From a bacterium (GTDB lineage: Bacteria; Planctomycetota; UBA8108; UBA1146): a stretch of 63,863 bases of DNA. Where the stretch lies: positions 1-63,863 of the forward strand of contig JAPOLY010000006.1 of the NCBI GenBank assembly GCA_029976805.1. The letters run 5' to 3'. A model generated the notes under the pieces. It searched no databases and had not been told where the DNA came from. It worked only from the letters and a program-made list of their open reading frames with translations. The position numbers and the translations under genes are program-made. This document shows positions 10,184 to 16,538 of the stretch, one piece after another; the first letter of the stretch is position 1, and every line of letters starts with the position of its first letter.

Positions 10184-11305
10184 ATGAAAACCGGATCGAG
10201 ATCTTTCGCTTTCGAATCAATGTTTTCACGGATCACCGGCGTGATCTTGATTCTGTTTTCGTGCGGCTGCCTTTCAAACAGTGGCCCACCCCAATACCAG
10301 AATCGGGTCATCCCCGAGTCTGCCCATCCTGTTCTCGTCGACGCCGATCTCTCACAAAGGTTTGGAGCCCGCAGGGCACAACAGGAATCTTCTCCCTCGC
10401 CAGATTTGAGTTATCAACTTCCGAAAGGGTGGGTCGAACTTCCCGTGACCTCGATGCGTCGCATGAACTTGCGCATCGCCGGGAACCCGCAAACGGAATG
10501 TTACCTGACCGTCTTTCAGGGTGGCGGATCCCTCCGTGACAATGTCGACCGCTGGTGTCAGCAAATGGGAGTGGAACCGATCTCCAATGAAGCTCTGGCC
10601 GCTTTGCCAAAAGCCAATCTTCTGGGAATGGAGGGGGTTCGTTTTGAGATCGATGGTGATTTCGACGGCGGTATGAGTTCTTCTGCCGTCGCAGATGCCC
10701 GCATGATCGTCTACGTCCTCCCCCTCGGTGGAGCGACAGTCTTTCTCAAGGCGACAGGTCCCAGAGATCTCTTGATCGCTGAGGCAGACAACCTGAGTCA
10801 GTTTGTGGAAGGCCTGAGCCTTTCACAGGCGACCGCCGCACAAAATCCTGCACCGACCTCCTCATCTCCCCCGGCGGCTTCTCCCCTTTCATGGGAGACA
10901 CCCGAGGGCTGGACTGCGATGGGCAGGAAGCCGATGCGCGAAGTCACCTTTGCCGCAGGGACTGATGCCCGCTGCTGGATCACCATTCTCGGGGGCGATG
11001 GCGGCGGCACCCTCGCGAATGTGAACCGCTGGCGCAATGAGATGGGACAGCCTCCACTCAAGGAGGGTGACCTTGCCGGTTTGCCGACCATGCCCATGTT
11101 GGGTGGTCAGGCATACGTGGTCGAGGCAGAGGGCTCCTATTCCAGCATGGGCTCCGCTGCGGAATCGGATTGGGCCATGATTGGTCTGATTCGAAACCTC
11201 GATGGAAAAGCAGTCTTCATCAAACTGGTCGGGCCCAAGCCTGAGGTCGAAGCGGCCCGGGATAATATCCGGTTCCTGGCCCAGTCCCTGAAGGAGACAT
11301 CATGA
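10184..11305 (+). CDS. Lipoprotein with two copies of an unknown domain, linked to cytochrome c maturation genes
   Basis: 373 residues from ATG 10184 (GGAGGAG upstream). The signal sequence ends in a lipobox-like LFSC. Two tandem copies of the same domain are visible. Copy 1 is at about residues 60-210 (starts LPKGWVELP, then CYLTVFQGGG, NVDRWCQQMG, LGMEGVRFE). Copy 2 is at about 245-372 (starts TPEGWTAMG, then CWITILGGDGG, NVNRWRNEMG, LGGQAYVVE). The copies share the pattern W...R...C-x-T-x-x-GG...N-V-x-R-W...G. Each keeps a single Cys in its third strand. Its stop overlaps the resB start by ATGA. I do not recognise the family; a role in periplasmic cytochrome c or thiol handling is inference from context. 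Confidence 0.7.
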   Translation: MKTGSRSFAFESMFSRITGVILILFSCGCLSNSGPPQYQNRVIPESAHPVLVDADLSQRFGARRAQQESSPSPDLSYQLPKGWVELPVTSMRRMNLRIAGNPQTECYLTVFQGGGSLRDNVDRWCQQMGVEPISNEALAALPKANLLGMEGVRFEIDGDFDGGMSSSAVADARMIVYVLPLGGATVFLKATGPRDLLIAEADNLSQFVEGLSLSQATAAQNPAPTSSSPPAASPLSWETPEGWTAMGRKPMREVTFAAGTDARCWITILGGDGGGTLANVNRWRNEMGQPPLKEGDLAGLPTMPMLGGQAYVVEAEGSYSSMGSAAESDWAMIGLIRNLDGKAVFIKLVGPKPEVEAARDNIRFLAQSLKETS

Positions 11306-12513
11306 GTTCTTCCAACCCATCTTTTTGGGATTCCAGAATCATCAAATCTTTCGGTTCGCTGGGACTCGCGGCGCTGATGATGACGTTCCTTCTGATCCTG
11401 ACCTTTCTGGGAACGATGGATCAGACCAACATGGGCATCTATCAAGCCCAGAAGAAGTATTTTGAATCTTGGGTCGTCCTCGATGCCTGGGCTCCCTGGG
11501 GCCTGCCGATGATTCCCCTGCCCGGCGGAATGCTGTGCATGATCATCTTTACTGCCAACCTTCTGGTGGGCGGCATTCTGAGGTTGCGCCTGAACAAGAA
11601 CAATCTCGGTGTCTTTGTGATTCACGTGGGTATCGCCCTCATGATGAGCGCTGGTCTGGTGAAGCTGCTCGCAGGCCAGGAAGGCTACCTCCGTCTTTGG
11701 GAAAATCAGAAAGCCTCCGAATACATCAGTCATCACGAATGGGAAATCTCTGTCTTTGAGGCGGATACGGGCGAAGTGACTGAGAAGACCCTGCACGAGC
11801 GATTCTGGCGTGGGCGTGACACTCTCACCGTTGCTCCGGTTGATGGAGTCCCCTTCTTCCTGAACCTTGATTTCCTTCATGGAAACTGCAGGCCCCAACC
11901 AGTCACGGCCGGTGAGTCCGTTCCTGAGGGAACCGTGGTCATCGATGACTGGTATCTGAAATCAGAAACGATGGATCCGGAAAATGAACGCAATATGCCC
12001 GGATTGGTCGCCTGGATTCACAAAGGACCGGAAGACAAGGAAGCGGGCAGGGACCGCAAAACTTTCCTTTGGGGTGGCCAGAACTATCCCTGGGCTTTCC
12101 AGCATGAAGGCAAAACCTGGGTGGTGGCGATACGAAAAGTCAGGCACTCGATGCCCTTCACCATCCAACTCGACAACTTTGAGAAAGTGGATTACCCCGG
12201 CATCACCATGGCCAAGGAGTTCCGCAGCGATGTCACCCAGATCTCCGAGGGTGGCCGCCGAAATGTCCGCATCGAAATGAATGATCCCCTCAGGGATCAG
12301 GGGCTGATTCTCTTCCAATCTTCATGGGGCCCCCCGGACGCCAAACCCGGCGATGAACTTTTCAGTGTCTTCGCTGTCGTTCACAACCCCTCTGACCACT
12401 GGCCCCTCTATTCCTGCATCATCATCGCACTGGGAATGGGCCTTGCCTTCGTTCAGAAATTCCTCGCCTACGGGCGCAGGCAATCGAAGAGATTGCAACA
12501 GGAGGCCGCATGA
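11302..12513 (+). CDS. resB: ResB-like cytochrome c biogenesis protein (System II)
   Basis: 403 residues. ResB/Ccs1 works with CcsA to export and attach haem to apocytochromes c at the outer face of the inner membrane. Seen: transmembrane helices at about residues 17-37 and 70-92, then the ResB-type segment NNLGVFVIHVGIALMMSAG. A large periplasmic domain follows (about 130-370, with VFIKLVG-free beta-rich sequence and FQSSWGPP near its end). The last helix, SCIIIALGMGLAFVQKFL, closes the chain. It overlaps its neighbours on both sides by ATGA, so it is tightly coupled to the lipoprotein and to ccsA. The assignment rests on topology, context and weak motif similarity. Confidence 0.8.
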   Translation: MSSSNPSFWDSRIIKSFGSLGLAALMMTFLLILTFLGTMDQTNMGIYQAQKKYFESWVVLDAWAPWGLPMIPLPGGMLCMIIFTANLLVGGILRLRLNKNNLGVFVIHVGIALMMSAGLVKLLAGQEGYLRLWENQKASEYISHHEWEISVFEADTGEVTEKTLHERFWRGRDTLTVAPVDGVPFFLNLDFLHGNCRPQPVTAGESVPEGTVVIDDWYLKSETMDPENERNMPGLVAWIHKGPEDKEAGRDRKTFLWGGQNYPWAFQHEGKTWVVAIRKVRHSMPFTIQLDNFEKVDYPGITMAKEFRSDVTQISEGGRRNVRIEMNDPLRDQGLILFQSSWGPPDAKPGDELFSVFAVVHNPSDHWPLYSCIIIALGMGLAFVQKFLAYGRRQSKRLQQEAA

Positions 12514-14606
12514 ACATTTTCCTCCAAAGATCTATCCTGCTGATTCTTCTGGCCCTCTTGAGTCTGCCTGCAACAGCTTTCCCGGTTCTTGCACAGGACG
12601 CTTCAGCGTCTGACTCACAAGCCGCTGACCCACAAGCGCCTGCCAGCACCTATGGAGAACCCGCAGCTCCCACTGCCAAGCGAGCTGCATTGTCTCGTGC
12701 TCCATGGTCTCAGGAGATTCTGGATGAAGTGGCCCGCTGGCCAATCCAGCACGGTGGACGTGTGAAACCGTTCCAGACCTTCGCCGGCTTCCTGATGCTC
12801 AAGGCCAATGGCAGAAGAACCCTGAAACTGGAAGACGAAAAATTGGATCCGGTAGCATGGGCTCTGGATTTCATGTTTTACCCCGAAGTCGCCAAACAGT
12901 ACCGCTGCATTCACGTCCCCAATGCTGAGGTCCTTACCGGCATCGGTTTCGATACCACGAACTTCCGACGCAGTGATCGCTACAGTTTTGATCAGTTGGA
13001 GCCGGTCTTGCCGACACTCTTCGAAAGTGCCCGCAGAACCACTCAAGCGAAGCCGGAAGCCAAGGAATGGACTCTCGTCGAGCGTCAAACCATCCAGTTG
13101 ATGCAGGACATCCGAGAGTTGGAAGTCCTCCTTTACTCAATGGATTCAGCCCGCAAGACCTTTGGGCTCAATACCGTCGAAGAATTGACTGCGATCTTCG
13201 GCGAGAACCCGGCACCGGGATACTCCCCCATTCTCCAACACATCGATCAGATGGCAGAGTTGACCGATCGCGAAAATCTTCTCGCAATCCCAGAAGATCG
13301 TCGGCCTGCTGTCATCGAAGCCTTGCGCAGTCTGCAGGAAGACCTGATTCGTTCTCTGGAAATTTCAGGAATGGGATACAACTGGTTTCCTCCGGAAGAA
13401 GTGATTCAGACCGAGGAAAATCTGCCCGTCGTCTGGACCACTTCTTCGGAAGTCATCCAGGAAGCCCTGGTGATGAAAAACACCGAGGAACGCGGCAAGG
13501 CACTCTACAGTCTGGAAAGATTGCCCTACCTCCTCGATGACCGCCCCCAATTTCTGGCGGAGGCCACCAACTTTGGTGCAACCTTGAGAACTCTTGCCGT
13601 AACTCAGGACTCGGGAAAACACATCTCCACTGAAGTCTCCTTCTACAACATGGATTACTTCACCAAGGCACTGGTCCTCTTCCTCCTCGGCTTTATCGTG
13701 AGCTGCCTGGGCTGGCTTGCACCCCAGAGTCGAGCACCCAAAAAGTTGACATGGATTCTGAGCCTTTCAGGGGTGGGGATGCTGATCGCCGGGGTCACCA
13801 TCCGCTGCGTGATTCAGGGGCGTCCCCCAGTCACCACGCTGTACGAGACGATTCTCTTTATCACCGGCTGCTGCGTGCTCACGGCCCAAGCGCTCGAGTA
13901 CTACGATCGACGCAATATCGCCCTGACCGTCTCCACCTTTCTGGGAGCACTGGGCTGCTTCCTCAGCAACCGCTATGAGTTGAAGGAAGCGGTCACCGCA
14001 GGCGATACGATGCCGAGTCTGGTCGCGGTTCTCGATACGAACTTCTGGCTGTCGACTCACGTCACCACCGTGACCCTCGGATACGCCGCGGGATTGCTGG
14101 CTGCCGCCATCTCTCATGTGTGGATTTTCTCCAAGATGCTCGGTGTCAAAAAATCAGATCCGAGTTACTACAAAAGTCTGACTCGCATGGTCTACGGAAC
14201 ACTCTGTTTCGGTCTCTTCTTCAGTATCGTCGGCACGATTCTGGGTGGTATCTGGGCCAACTACTCATGGGGTCGATTCTGGGGCTGGGATCCTAAGGAG
14301 AATGGCGCACTAATGATCTGCCTTGCCGAACTGATCATTCTTCACCTCCGAATGGGTGGCTACATCCGTGACCGTGGTGTTCATGTCCTTAGTGTCCTCA
14401 ACGCCATGATCATCGCGTTTTCCTGGTGGGGCGTGAACCTGCTGGGGGTCGGTCTTCACAGTTACGGATTTACTGACGGTATCTTCAAGCTTCTAGCGGG
14501 CTTCTTTGCCCTCGAAATGATCGTCATGGGCATTGGCCTGTTGCAAAAGAGTGGCGGTGGCAAGGAACCCCCTGCCCCTCCTGCTGAATCCGCAGCCACA
14601 GGTTAA
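12510..14606 (+). CDS. ccsA: CcsA/ResC-like haem-handling cytochrome c biogenesis protein with a long N-terminal domain
   Basis: 698 residues. The C-terminal 330 residues are a multi-helix CcsA domain. It contains the haem-binding tryptophan-rich WWD-type motif WGRFWGWDPKEN (about residue 590) and conserved histidines in LSTHVTTVTLGYA and LGVGLHSYGF. The N-terminal 350 residues follow a signal-like segment and are mostly soluble and helical (start RWPIQHGGRVKPFQTFAG). This extension is absent from Bacillus ResC but is common in CcsA-type proteins of Planctomycetota and Bacteroidota, as I recall. With ResB it forms the System II synthetase. Confidence 0.9.
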   Translation: MNIFLQRSILLILLALLSLPATAFPVLAQDASASDSQAADPQAPASTYGEPAAPTAKRAALSRAPWSQEILDEVARWPIQHGGRVKPFQTFAGFLMLKANGRRTLKLEDEKLDPVAWALDFMFYPEVAKQYRCIHVPNAEVLTGIGFDTTNFRRSDRYSFDQLEPVLPTLFESARRTTQAKPEAKEWTLVERQTIQLMQDIRELEVLLYSMDSARKTFGLNTVEELTAIFGENPAPGYSPILQHIDQMAELTDRENLLAIPEDRRPAVIEALRSLQEDLIRSLEISGMGYNWFPPEEVIQTEENLPVVWTTSSEVIQEALVMKNTEERGKALYSLERLPYLLDDRPQFLAEATNFGATLRTLAVTQDSGKHISTEVSFYNMDYFTKALVLFLLGFIVSCLGWLAPQSRAPKKLTWILSLSGVGMLIAGVTIRCVIQGRPPVTTLYETILFITGCCVLTAQALEYYDRRNIALTVSTFLGALGCFLSNRYELKEAVTAGDTMPSLVAVLDTNFWLSTHVTTVTLGYAAGLLAAAISHVWIFSKMLGVKKSDPSYYKSLTRMVYGTLCFGLFFSIVGTILGGIWANYSWGRFWGWDPKENGALMICLAELIILHLRMGGYIRDRGVHVLSVLNAMIIAFSWWGVNLLGVGLHSYGFTDGIFKLLAGFFALEMIVMGIGLLQKSGGGKEPPAPPAESAATG

Positions 14607-15274
14607 TGGAGCGACTGTCGTTTTCACCGAAGCTCGTCGTTTTTGATCTCGATGGAACCCTCATCGATTCCATCGGCGACATCGCCTCGGCGGTAAATCG
14701 CTTCCGAAACTCCCGAGGTGGATCAGTTCTCACAGAGGAGAAGGTCAGAGGAGCAGTGGGGCACGGCGCCCGAGAGCTGTGCAAAGCACTTCTGACAGAC
14801 CTCGCCATGGCGGACGAGAGCACTGAAGATCTGTATCAGGCATTCCGGGCCATCTACATTGCAGAAGCGGGACTCCCAGATCACCAGATTCGCTGGCTAC
14901 CCGGGGCTCTCGAGTTGCTCCAGCATCTGAATCAGCGACAGATCGCCGGTGCCATTCTGACCAACAAGCCACGAAGGGTCACCGAAGTACTGAAGCCACA
15001 ACTGACGAAGGCTTTTGCGTGGAAACAGATCTTCTGTCCGGAGGATGCCGGTACTCCCAAACCGGACCCCGCGGGACTCCAACAGCTGATGGATTTGAAT
15101 CAGTGCCGGGCCGATCAGGTGATCTATGTCGGCGATTCTGCCGTCGATTTTTCAACCGGAAAAGCCGCCGGAGTCCTGACACTGGGTCTCCGGGGAGGTT
15201 ATGGTCAAATCACGCCTCCAGAACCGGATCACTGGATGGCCGAGATTTCAGAAATGATTCCGCTCATCGACTGA
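14606..15274 (+). CDS. gph: HAD-superfamily phosphoglycolate phosphatase-like hydrolase
   Basis: 222 residues. Motif I is VVFDLDGTLIDS (nucleophile Asp and acid Asp), motif II is ILTNKPRR, and motif III/IV is in the stretch PKPDPAGL...IYVGDSAVDFSTGKAAG. The helical cap lies between motifs I and II. This matches the Gph/PGP branch, which removes phosphate from 2-phosphoglycolate formed during repair of oxidised DNA ends. It shares one base with the ccsA stop (TAATG). The endonuclease IV gene follows 21 nt later, and its repair chemistry is a source of phosphoglycolate. Confidence 0.85.
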   Translation: MERLSFSPKLVVFDLDGTLIDSIGDIASAVNRFRNSRGGSVLTEEKVRGAVGHGARELCKALLTDLAMADESTEDLYQAFRAIYIAEAGLPDHQIRWLPGALELLQHLNQRQIAGAILTNKPRRVTEVLKPQLTKAFAWKQIFCPEDAGTPKPDPAGLQQLMDLNQCRADQVIYVGDSAVDFSTGKAAGVLTLGLRGGYGQITPPEPDHWMAEISEMIPLID

Positions 15275-15295: not shown

Positions 15296-16204
15296 ATGCC
15301 CACCGCCACCGCTGGACAGAGAAAACTGCGCAAAAGCTTCAAGAACACTGAAGACCGGAATTGCCTTGGCAGCCATTTGTCAGTTTCCGGAGGTCCCTGG
15401 AAAGCCGTCGAGGAAGCGATCGAGCTGGAGATCCGGGCACTGCAGATCTTCACCAAAAATGCCAGTCGTTGGGTACAGAAACCCATCGACCCCAAGCATG
15501 TCGAGAAGTTTCATGCCGCCATCGAAGAATGGGGTGCCCATCCCCTCCTCAGCCACGACTCCTACCTGATCAATCTCGCCTCTCCCAAGGAGGAGCTGTT
15601 CCAAAAATCCATCGCCGCCTTCGCCGATGAATTAGAGCGGGCAGAGTTGCTCGGCCTCGATTTCCTCGTCATGCATCCCGGCGCCCATGTTGGCAGTGGA
15701 GTCGAAGCAGGCATCGAACGCATCGCTGCAGGCATGCGGGAAGCCTTTGATCGGGTCCCCCATGTCAAAACCCGGGTCCTCCTCGAAAACACCGCGGGTG
15801 GTGGGTCCACCATGGGAAGATCCTTCGAGGAACTGCGGGATCTCCTTGCCGCCATCGACACTCCAGAACGAACCGGAACCTGCATCGACACCTGCCACAT
15901 GTTTGCCGCCGGCTACGAACTGAGAACCGAAGAGGGCTATCAGGAAACGATGAAACAACTCGACAAGATTCTGGGGGCCCGCCGCGTCTTTGCGCTTCAC
16001 CTCAATGACAGCAAAGGTGATCTCGGCAGTCACCTCGATCGTCACATGCACATCGGTGATGGCCTGATCGGCAAAAAGGGGTTCCAGTTCGTCATGCAAG
16101 ACGATCGCTTCGCCGGTATTCCCAAGATTCTCGAAACTCCCAAGGTTGAAGACATGGATCAACAGAACCTTTCATTGCTGGAACAACTGGCGAAAAAGAA
16201 ATGA
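15296..16204 (+). CDS. nfo: Deoxyribonuclease IV (AP endonuclease, Nfo)
   Basis: 302 residues. It cuts DNA 5' to abasic sites in base-excision repair. Seen in order: GSHLSVSGG with the first metal His, ALQIFTKNASRW, HDSYLINLASP, LDFLVMHPGAHVGSG, VLLENTAGGGSTMGRSFEEL, CIDTCHMFAAGY, FALHLNDSKGDLGSHLDRHMHIGDG, and IPKILETPK. The zinc ligands of the TIM-barrel family (His, Glu, Asp, His) are all in place. Length is close to that of E. coli Nfo plus a short basic N-terminus. The gene ends TGA 7 nt before the start of the TGA-interrupted small gene. Confidence 0.95.
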   Translation: MPTATAGQRKLRKSFKNTEDRNCLGSHLSVSGGPWKAVEEAIELEIRALQIFTKNASRWVQKPIDPKHVEKFHAAIEEWGAHPLLSHDSYLINLASPKEELFQKSIAAFADELERAELLGLDFLVMHPGAHVGSGVEAGIERIAAGMREAFDRVPHVKTRVLLENTAGGGSTMGRSFEELRDLLAAIDTPERTGTCIDTCHMFAAGYELRTEEGYQETMKQLDKILGARRVFALHLNDSKGDLGSHLDRHMHIGDGLIGKKGFQFVMQDDRFAGIPKILETPKVEDMDQQNLSLLEQLAKKK

Positions 16205-16211
16205 GGCTTTC

Positions 16212-16538
16212 TTGAACCAGGAACTTCAACCGGAAGACTGGGTTCCCATCGGCAAAGGTGGCCCCTCCGAGATTCGAGCCCTTGCCCAGGCGCTCGAAAC
16301 CGCCGGTATCGCCCCCATGGTCCAGACGGTTCCCGGAGGCTGAGGAACCCAACTGATTCTCGCGGTCGCGAGAGCCGATCTTCCCGCCACCCAACAGGTT
16401 CTTGCAGCTCTCGCCGCTGAGAATGCTCCAGAAGGATCACACGAACCGGAAACTGACGGCTCTGCCTGCCCCGCCTGTATGACCAGTATTCCCGCAGAAG
16501 CAGAAGAGTGCCCCGATTGCGGGATTCGCCTTCGGTAA
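16212..16538 (+). CDS. Candidate selenoprotein: DUF2007-like domain plus C-terminal zinc ribbon, one in-frame TGA (Sec44)
   Basis: One continuous frame of 108 codons from TTG 16212 (GAGG 5 nt upstream) to TAA 16536. It is interrupted only by TGA at 16341-16343, codon 44. Residues 18-68 (S-E-I-R-A-L-A-Q-A-L-E-T-A-G-I before the TGA; TQLILAVARADLPATQQVL after it) match the shape of DUF2007/GlnB-like small domains: helix, strand, strand, helix. Sec44 falls in the loop PGG-U-GTQ between strands. The C-terminus has C86PAC89 and C100PDC103G, a zinc ribbon. A hairpin with a GGUC loop begins 14 nt after the TGA (16358-16373). The gene follows nfo by 7 nt, at the end of the thioredoxin-cytochrome c run. 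Alternatives: a pseudogene or a base-call error. Confidence 0.65.
16355..16380 (+). promoter_or_regulatory. SECIS-like hairpin downstream of the in-frame TGA
   Basis: TCTCGC (16358-16363) pairs perfectly with GCGAGA (16368-16373) around the loop GGTC (16364-16367). A lower helix GAT/ATC (16355-16357 with 16378-16380) may extend it across a four-base bulge. The apical loop starts 20 nt after the TGA, within the usual 16-37 nt of bacterial SECIS elements, and has G at its first two positions. GGUC is also part of the SelB-binding loop of E. coli fdhF. The structure is read by eye. Confidence 0.6.

What the first reader, a model, noticed from the sequence alone, without database searches (positions are those of the whole stretch)
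16212..16538. Second candidate selenoprotein: small DUF2007-like plus zinc-ribbon protein with Sec in a PGG-U-GT loop
A short gene that ordinary callers would likely drop is one clean frame across an in-frame TGA. Reading through joins a strand-rich half to a helix and a CPAC/CPDCG zinc ribbon. The TGA is followed at 20 nt by a perfect 6-bp hairpin with a GGUC loop. It is not a CxxU motif, so the chemistry would be unusual: Sec between two strands of a GlnB-like fold. I know no described selenoprotein of this architecture, though I cannot search. Its place at the end of a thioredoxin-cytochrome c maturation run hints at redox work.
Basis: partly seen in the sequence, partly recalled or inferred. 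Interest (0 to 1): 0.9.

Follow-up and report, generated by a model that had tools for sequence, protein, structure and literature searches.

The report
Selenoprotein related to selenium-carrier proteins
A short gene that standard annotation would cut off at a stop codon is, by strong comparative evidence, a genuine selenocysteine protein found across many planctomycete bacteria; it is a divergent branch of a selenoprotein family predicted in 2025, and its selenium sits where the key cysteine lies in proteins thought to carry selenium or sulfur inside cells.

Summary
In 34 homologues from six Planctomycetota families the TGA lies in the same alignment column. Exactly 15 nt after it, all 34 carry the same 12 nt, CTCGCGGTCGCG, including all four wobble positions, while every other wobble position nearby varies. 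This forms a CUCGC-GGUC-GCGAG hairpin that fits the bacterial SECIS model, and its outer pair covaries. Cys homologues (anammox Brocadiales) have Cys in that column and lack the element. The genome has selA, selB, a Sec-type selD and tRNA-Sec.
It is not wholly new. The protein is a short, divergent relative of 'zinc ribbon-containing (seleno)protein DG' (NF049953), predicted in 2025 in Desulfobacterota. It scores 45 bits against a cut-off of 130 and lacks DG's N-terminal zinc ribbon. A bona fide Desulfobulbaceae DG has Sec in the same column.
The domain is closer to DUF3343 (putative Se/S carrier) than to DUF2007, and Sec falls on DUF3343's invariant Cys. A Se/S-carrier or selenol-transfer role is the best guess and is unproven. 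The redox-operon hint does not hold outside its own family.

The parts
16212..16538 (+). Selenoprotein CDS (DG-like, short form), TTG start, UGA = Sec at codon 44, TAA stop; 108 aa
16203..16206 (+). Shine-Dalgarno-like GAGG, 5 nt before the TTG start, overlapping the stop of the upstream gene
   Evidence: read in the sequence; the start agrees with ATG starts of relatives
16236..16424 (+). beta-alpha-beta-beta-alpha domain related to DUF3343 (PF11823, Se/S carrier) and DUF2007
   Evidence: hhalign 93% / E 2.7e-7 to DUF3343, 58% / E 1e-4 to DUF2007, controls; AlphaFold model
16341..16343 (+). Sec codon TGA, at the tip of the beta2-beta3 hairpin (PGG-U-GT)
   Evidence: TGA in 34/34 Sec-type homologues, Cys in Brocadiales and L067
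16358..16373 (+). SECIS hairpin UCUCGC-GGUC-GCGAGA; loop 20 nt after the UGA
   Evidence: core 16359-16370 invariant in 34/34; outer pair G-C 17, C-G 5, U-A 2, A-U 1, G-U 1
16467..16520 (+). C-terminal zinc ribbon CPAC-x10-CPDC
   Evidence: all four Cys invariant in A1; weak matches to zinc-ribbon families
15296..16204 (+). neighbour: AP_endonuc_2 family (Nfo-like); upstream gene conserved only within family f1
14606..15274 (+). neighbour: HAD hydrolase
11302..14606 (+). neighbours: ResB and cytochrome c assembly (CcsA-type) proteins

Best explanation
16212-16538 encodes a real selenoprotein, a short, divergent member of the DG (NF049953) superfamily. Shown by comparison: the UGA is read as Sec; a SECIS hairpin just downstream is held by selection; Sec44 replaces the Cys of other members; the genome has the Sec machinery. 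Predicted: Sec44 sits at the tip of the beta2-beta3 hairpin of a small beta-alpha-beta-beta-alpha domain, exactly where DUF3343 proteins (putative Se/S carriers) have their one invariant Cys, next to a C-terminal zinc ribbon. Inferred: the exposed selenolate acts as a nucleophile that picks up and hands on sulfur or selenium (as a selenenylsulfide or perselenide), or exchanges with thiols, with the zinc ribbon docking a partner. Most Sec forms have no second Cys in the loop, so the adduct would have to be resolved by another molecule (a partner protein or thioredoxin), not inside the loop. The confidence below is for the selenoprotein and family claims; for the Se/S-carrier role alone it is about 0.4.
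For: TGA in one column in 34 homologues of widely differing identity to the window protein (26-96%), with the frame open beyond it. 12 invariant nt, including four wobble positions (one base each) where the neighbouring wobble positions show three or four bases. Covarying outer pair, 26/27 paired, score above all 500 shuffles. Cys in that column in Brocadiales and L067, with the element absent. selA-selD(Sec)-tRNA-Sec cluster and full selB in this genome. tRNA-Sec in 33/34 TGA genomes against 15/27 with a stop-free homologue, p = 9e-5. NF049953 matches all 34 members of A1; a bona fide DG at 179 bits (L110) has Sec in the same column. DUF3343 homology E 2.7e-7, Cys on Sec; score 40 against at most 15.7 in 100 shuffles, still 31 with the Cys-Gly masked. 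Model: strand, Sec, strand.
Against: No protein or mass-spectrometry data. Single-sequence folding energy is not unusual. One homologue (L068) has TGG with the SECIS intact, and one (L016) has lost both the site and the element, so the residue is dispensable in some lineages. The carrier role of DUF3343 is itself only a published proposal (PMC5322559). No neighbour is shared across families. This genome has no canonical DUF3343 gene to compare with. Model confidence is moderate (pLDDT 77, pTM 0.50).
Confidence: 0.93

Rival explanations
1. Same selenoprotein, but its work is thiol-disulfide or peroxide redox chemistry: Sec44 as a redox nucleophile reduced by thioredoxin, not a Se/S carrier.
For: Most selenoproteins are thought to be redox proteins (PMC13188914). 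About a third of the Sec forms have a Cys shortly before Sec (e.g. CGTG-U, CSS-U), and Cys forms have CxxxxCxC. A thioredoxin gene, ResB/CcsA and a DsbD-like gene lie within about 6 kb.
Against: The second Cys is missing in the window's whole family and in many others; no thioredoxin fold; the neighbours are not conserved outside family f1.
Confidence: 0.35
2. Metal or metalloid binding: Sec plus nearby Cys and the zinc ribbon form a site for a soft metal (Hg, As, Cu) or a regulatory metal.
For: Cys-rich loop CxxxxCxC in Brocadiales Cys forms; small size; some listed selenoproteins bind or act on metals (PMC13188914).
Against: Most Sec forms have Sec alone in the loop; no metal-resistance genes found beside the genes examined.
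Confidence: 0.12
3. Not a selenoprotein: the TGA is a real stop, and the downstream part is a decayed or separately translated zinc ribbon, or the TGA is an assembly error.
For: A 43-codon product could end at the TGA; the hairpin is not unusually stable on its own; one relative has TGG.
Against: Downstream frame conserved in 34 genomes; the 12 invariant nt occur in the TGA forms and the one TGG relative and not in the Cys forms read; Cys in homologues; Sec machinery present.
Confidence: 0.02
4. UGA is read through as an ordinary amino acid (e.g. Trp) by suppression, not as Sec.
For: L068 has TGG at the site.
Against: Other genes end in TGA; the other lineages that replace the TGA while keeping the site use Cys; SECIS-like invariant hairpin; genomes with the TGA form carry tRNA-Sec and selB.
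Confidence: 0.02

Closest known systems
NCBIfam NF049953 'zinc ribbon-containing (seleno)protein DG' (hypothetical protein DG, deep-Sep, PMC12013277; listed in PMC13188914)
   Same: All 34 aligned members match the model. Sec is in the same column as in a bona fide DG (L110, Desulfobulbaceae, 179 bits, SGCGGG-U-GG). C-terminal CPxC...CPxC ribbon and DUF3343-like domain.
   Different: Window protein scores 45 bits against a cut-off of 130 and matches only 57-171 of 172: no N-terminal zinc ribbon. Planctomycetota, not Desulfobacterota. SECIS differs (loop GGUC at 20 nt; L110 has loop AGUU at 16 nt).
PF11823 Se_S_carrier (DUF3343)
   Same: Profile-profile E 2.7e-7, Cys-Gly on Sec-Gly, similar length of the domain; some members of the family match Pfam directly (e.g. 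L020, E 2e-4).
   Different: Sec instead of Cys, a C-terminal zinc ribbon, no 'PR.lSSDCG' motif, below Pfam's cut-off.
PF09413 DUF2007 (GlnB-like)
   Same: Distant profile match; hhalign 58%, E 1e-4.
   Different: No conserved Cys; the weaker of the two matches. DUF2007 and DUF3343 are themselves related.
Bacterial SECIS (bSECIS) consensus
   Same: Stem-loop after UGA, loop at 20 nt (model 16-37), loop begins GG, stem of 4 bp or more (PMC13188914).
   Different: The primary sequence of the core is invariant in this gene across the families seen, so strict that it fixes the peptide L-A-V-A.

Membership tests
Selenoprotein | in-frame UGA conserved in homologues | tested here: met
   34/34 Sec-type homologues, one column
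Selenoprotein | Cys at the Sec position in other homologues | tested here: met
   Brocadiales Cys clade and L067
Selenoprotein | SECIS 3' of the UGA fitting the bSECIS model | tested here: met
   model from PMC13188914
Selenoprotein | SelA, SelB, SelD, tRNA-Sec in the genome | tested here: met
Selenoprotein | selenium detected in the protein | not testable with these tools
   no expression or mass-spectrometry data
NF049953 DG | score over the curated cut-off (130 bits) | tested here: not met
   45.4 bits, E 8e-12
NF049953 DG | N-terminal zinc ribbon | tested here: not met
   match starts at model position 57; the upstream gene ends 8 nt before the start
NF049953 DG | Sec/Cys column and C-terminal zinc ribbon | tested here: met
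PF11823 DUF3343 Se/S carrier | score over Pfam cut-off (25 bits) | tested here: not met
   window protein has no direct match; the best of ten relatives scanned one by one reaches 21.2 bits
PF11823 DUF3343 Se/S carrier | invariant Cys-Gly after the second strand | tested here: met
   Sec-Gly aligned on it; homology holds with that pair masked
PF11823 DUF3343 Se/S carrier | binds or delivers Se/S | not testable with these tools
   only proposed in PMC5322559
PF09413 DUF2007 | direct Pfam match | tested here: not met
   no match for the window protein; distant profile match only

The most novel reading that the evidence does not exclude
A selenium- or sulfur-trafficking protein that is itself a selenoprotein: a DUF3343-type carrier whose carrier Cys has become Sec, working beside a Sec-type SelD. 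A minimal ribbon-less copy with the same Sec and SECIS exists in one genome (G240:C75), so the bare carrier-like domain may stand alone.
Probability: 0.35. Interest if true: 0.85.

Novelty: new variant of a known kind. Interest (0 to 1): 0.6.

Why it matters
It extends a thinly described selenoprotein family to many Planctomycetota lineages and gives its domain a first credible relative, the putative Se/S carrier DUF3343, with Sec exactly on the carrier's invariant Cys. That makes a testable link between a Sec protein and selenium delivery, an open question (what hands selenium to SelD). It is also an unusually clean natural case of an RNA signal dictating a protein sequence: the SECIS core is the same 12 nt in every Planctomycetota Sec gene of this family examined and fixes the peptide LAVA, while Cys relatives without the signal mostly read LLLV or LLLT. 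The pattern TGA-N15-CTCGCGGTCGCG finds this selenoprotein in Planctomycetota genomes by nucleotide search alone.

Tried and rejected
A first scan with the full alignment had no conserved block, and a narrower one worked. The Rfam tRNA-Sec model also rings on ordinary tRNAs, so only E <= 1e-11 was counted. Searching PDB sequences with the family and with DUF3343 found no solved homologue of the domain. Fold comparison gave only common half-ferredoxin-like folds: EscJ/PrgK rings (Z about 9), RPA1041 (2hfv, Z 6.5), SPOR and GlnB/PII types, with nothing pointing to a function. Gene neighbourhood across families showed no shared partner. Four of the five non-family hits of the SECIS pattern were read and show no related protein; G306 was not fetched; the number fits chance (9 in the control). 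Supplementary tables of the DG paper could not be read, so whether its authors already listed planctomycete copies is unknown. I considered and rejected sequencing error, a pseudogene, and genome-wide recoding of TGA.

Full report
Observation. Window 16212-16538 is a single frame, TTG to TAA, broken only by TGA at codon 44 (16341-16343). GAGG at 16203-16206 is a fitting ribosome-binding site for the TTG, and relatives begin at the matching place with ATG. Taken alone its stability is ordinary (z -0.19), so its meaning has to come from comparison.

Homologues. A six-frame search of 392 Planctomycetota genomes found the joined protein, with exactly one in-frame TGA, in all seven genomes of the genus sampled, in two further genera of the family, and in five other families of the phylum (f35, f59, f70, f49, f86; mostly 30-40% identity). 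After extraction and alignment all 34 Sec-type genes carry the TGA in one column. Homologues without a stop mostly have Cys there: the Brocadiales (Kuenenia, Brocadia, Scalindua, Loosdrechtia; named) with PGC-STGK-C-GC, and L067 with CDTG-C. Two exceptions: L068 has TGG (Trp) with the RNA element intact, and L016 has lost both. A tree gives one strong Brocadiales Cys clade and a second Cys protein (L067) inside the Sec group (moderate support), so Sec and Cys have probably been exchanged more than once.

RNA element. In all 34 genes the 12 nt CTCGCGGTCGCG begin exactly 15 nt after the TGA. They encode Leu-Ala-Val-Ala, each with one codon only (CTC, GCG, GTC, GCG in 34/34). Among 28 less redundant genes every other wobble position from the TGA to +60 shows three or four different bases, and these four show one. 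The core forms CUCGC-GGUC-GCGAG. The next pair outward is G-C 17, C-G 5, U-A 2, A-U 1, G-U 1, unpaired 1 of 27, and the covariation score exceeds all 500 shuffles. Six of 27 lack pair 19-32; in several of these a bulged A restores the stem. Loop distance (20 nt) and a loop starting GG fit the published bSECIS model (PMC13188914). Cys relatives mostly read LLLV or LLLT with varied codons and lack the element. So LAVA in the Sec forms appears to be imposed by the RNA signal. A search of 392 genomes for TGA-N15-CTCGCGGTCGCG gave 43 matches against 9 for the reversed control. Of the 43, 37 are this gene (adding G092, G350, G378), one is a ribbon-less Sec copy in G240, and of the remaining five the four that were read are unrelated.

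Sec machinery. This genome has selA, a selD that is itself a Sec gene (ASCAG-U-AAKL) and tRNA-Sec together on contig 61, and a full selB on contig 157. tRNA-Sec at E <= 1e-11 is present in 33 of 34 TGA genomes against 15 of 27 genomes with a stop-free homologue (counted; Fisher p = 9e-5). The single exception, G030, has selB over the cut-off, so its tRNA gene is probably in an assembly gap. Eight genomes with the Cys form and no strong tRNA-Sec hit (f93 and f47 genus g89) have no selB over the cut-off.

Identity. NCBIfam NF049953, 'zinc ribbon-containing (seleno)protein DG', matches all 34 aligned members of A1. It comes from a 2025 deep-learning prediction in Desulfosediminicola (PMC12013277) and is listed with motif GUxG in a 2026 review (PMC13188914). 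The window protein scores 45 bits (cut-off 130) over positions 57-171 of 172, so it lacks the N-terminal ribbon. A Desulfobulbaceae gene, L110, scores 179 bits with SGCGGG-U-GG; its Sec is in the window's column, and it has its own hairpin with loop AGUU 16 nt after the UGA (read by eye). The window gene is therefore a short, divergent branch of a known predicted family.

Fold and relatives. Pfam's Se_S_carrier (PF11823, DUF3343) hits eight members (best E 2.6e-5). A DUF3343 alignment built from 12 Planctomycetota copies and one clostridial copy matches the family at 93% probability, E 2.7e-7, with its invariant Cys-Gly on Sec-Gly. The score is 40 against at most 15.7 for 100 column shuffles, and 31 when Cys-Gly is masked. 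DUF2007 matches less well (58%, E 1e-4) and is itself related to DUF3343. Published work proposes DUF3343 as a small Se/S trafficking chaperone with one highly conserved Cys, next to YedF and Sec lyase genes (PMC5322559); this is not experimentally shown.

Function. Shown by comparison: selenoprotein, SECIS, Sec/Cys exchange, shared descent with DG and DUF3343. Predicted: Sec at the hairpin tip. Inferred: the selenolate is a nucleophile for Se/S transfer or thiol exchange, with the zinc ribbon as a docking part. A second Cys in the loop is present in only about a third of the Sec forms and not in the window's family, so a built-in Sec-Cys couple cannot be the general mechanism. The surrounding thioredoxin, ResB/CcsA and DsbD-like genes keep company with the gene only within family f1, so they are weak evidence for a redox role. 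The stated confidence covers the selenoprotein and family claims; for the carrier role alone I would put 0.4, for redox 0.35.

Verdict. By comparative evidence this is a true, conserved selenoprotein that normal gene calling would cut or miss. It is a new variant of a recently predicted family; what is new here, as far as the searched literature shows, is its distribution over several Planctomycetota families, an invariant SECIS core that dictates part of the protein sequence, and the link to a putative selenium/sulfur carrier fold.

Noticed in passing
   Followed up: partly
L079 11087-12138 (own genome, contig 61): selD is a Sec form (ASCAG-U-AAKL) next to selA and tRNA-Sec; a hairpin GGACCU-GGUCG-AGGUCC follows, again with a loop starting GGUC.
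   Followed up: partly
L179 3850-4029 (G240:C75): A second, zinc-ribbon-less Sec copy of about 59 aa, GGCPPTA-U-RPYVELAVAS, with the same invariant SECIS: the bare carrier-like domain standing alone.
   Followed up: partly
L068 298-615 (G125): TGG (Trp) at the Sec codon while the SECIS core CTCGCGGTCGCGAGC is intact, in a genome with selB and tRNA-Sec: a very recent loss or a base error.
   Followed up: no
L016 1501-1806 (G246, same order): Homologue that has lost both the Sec/Cys residue and the SECIS but keeps the zinc ribbon, in a genome that still has tRNA-Sec and selB.
   Followed up: no
L110, from the TGA of the match 1133-1456 onward: Bona fide Desulfobulbaceae DG uses a different hairpin (GACUUCC-AGUU-GGAAGUC, loop 16 nt after the UGA), so the two lineages share the Sec column but not the RNA element.
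   Followed up: no
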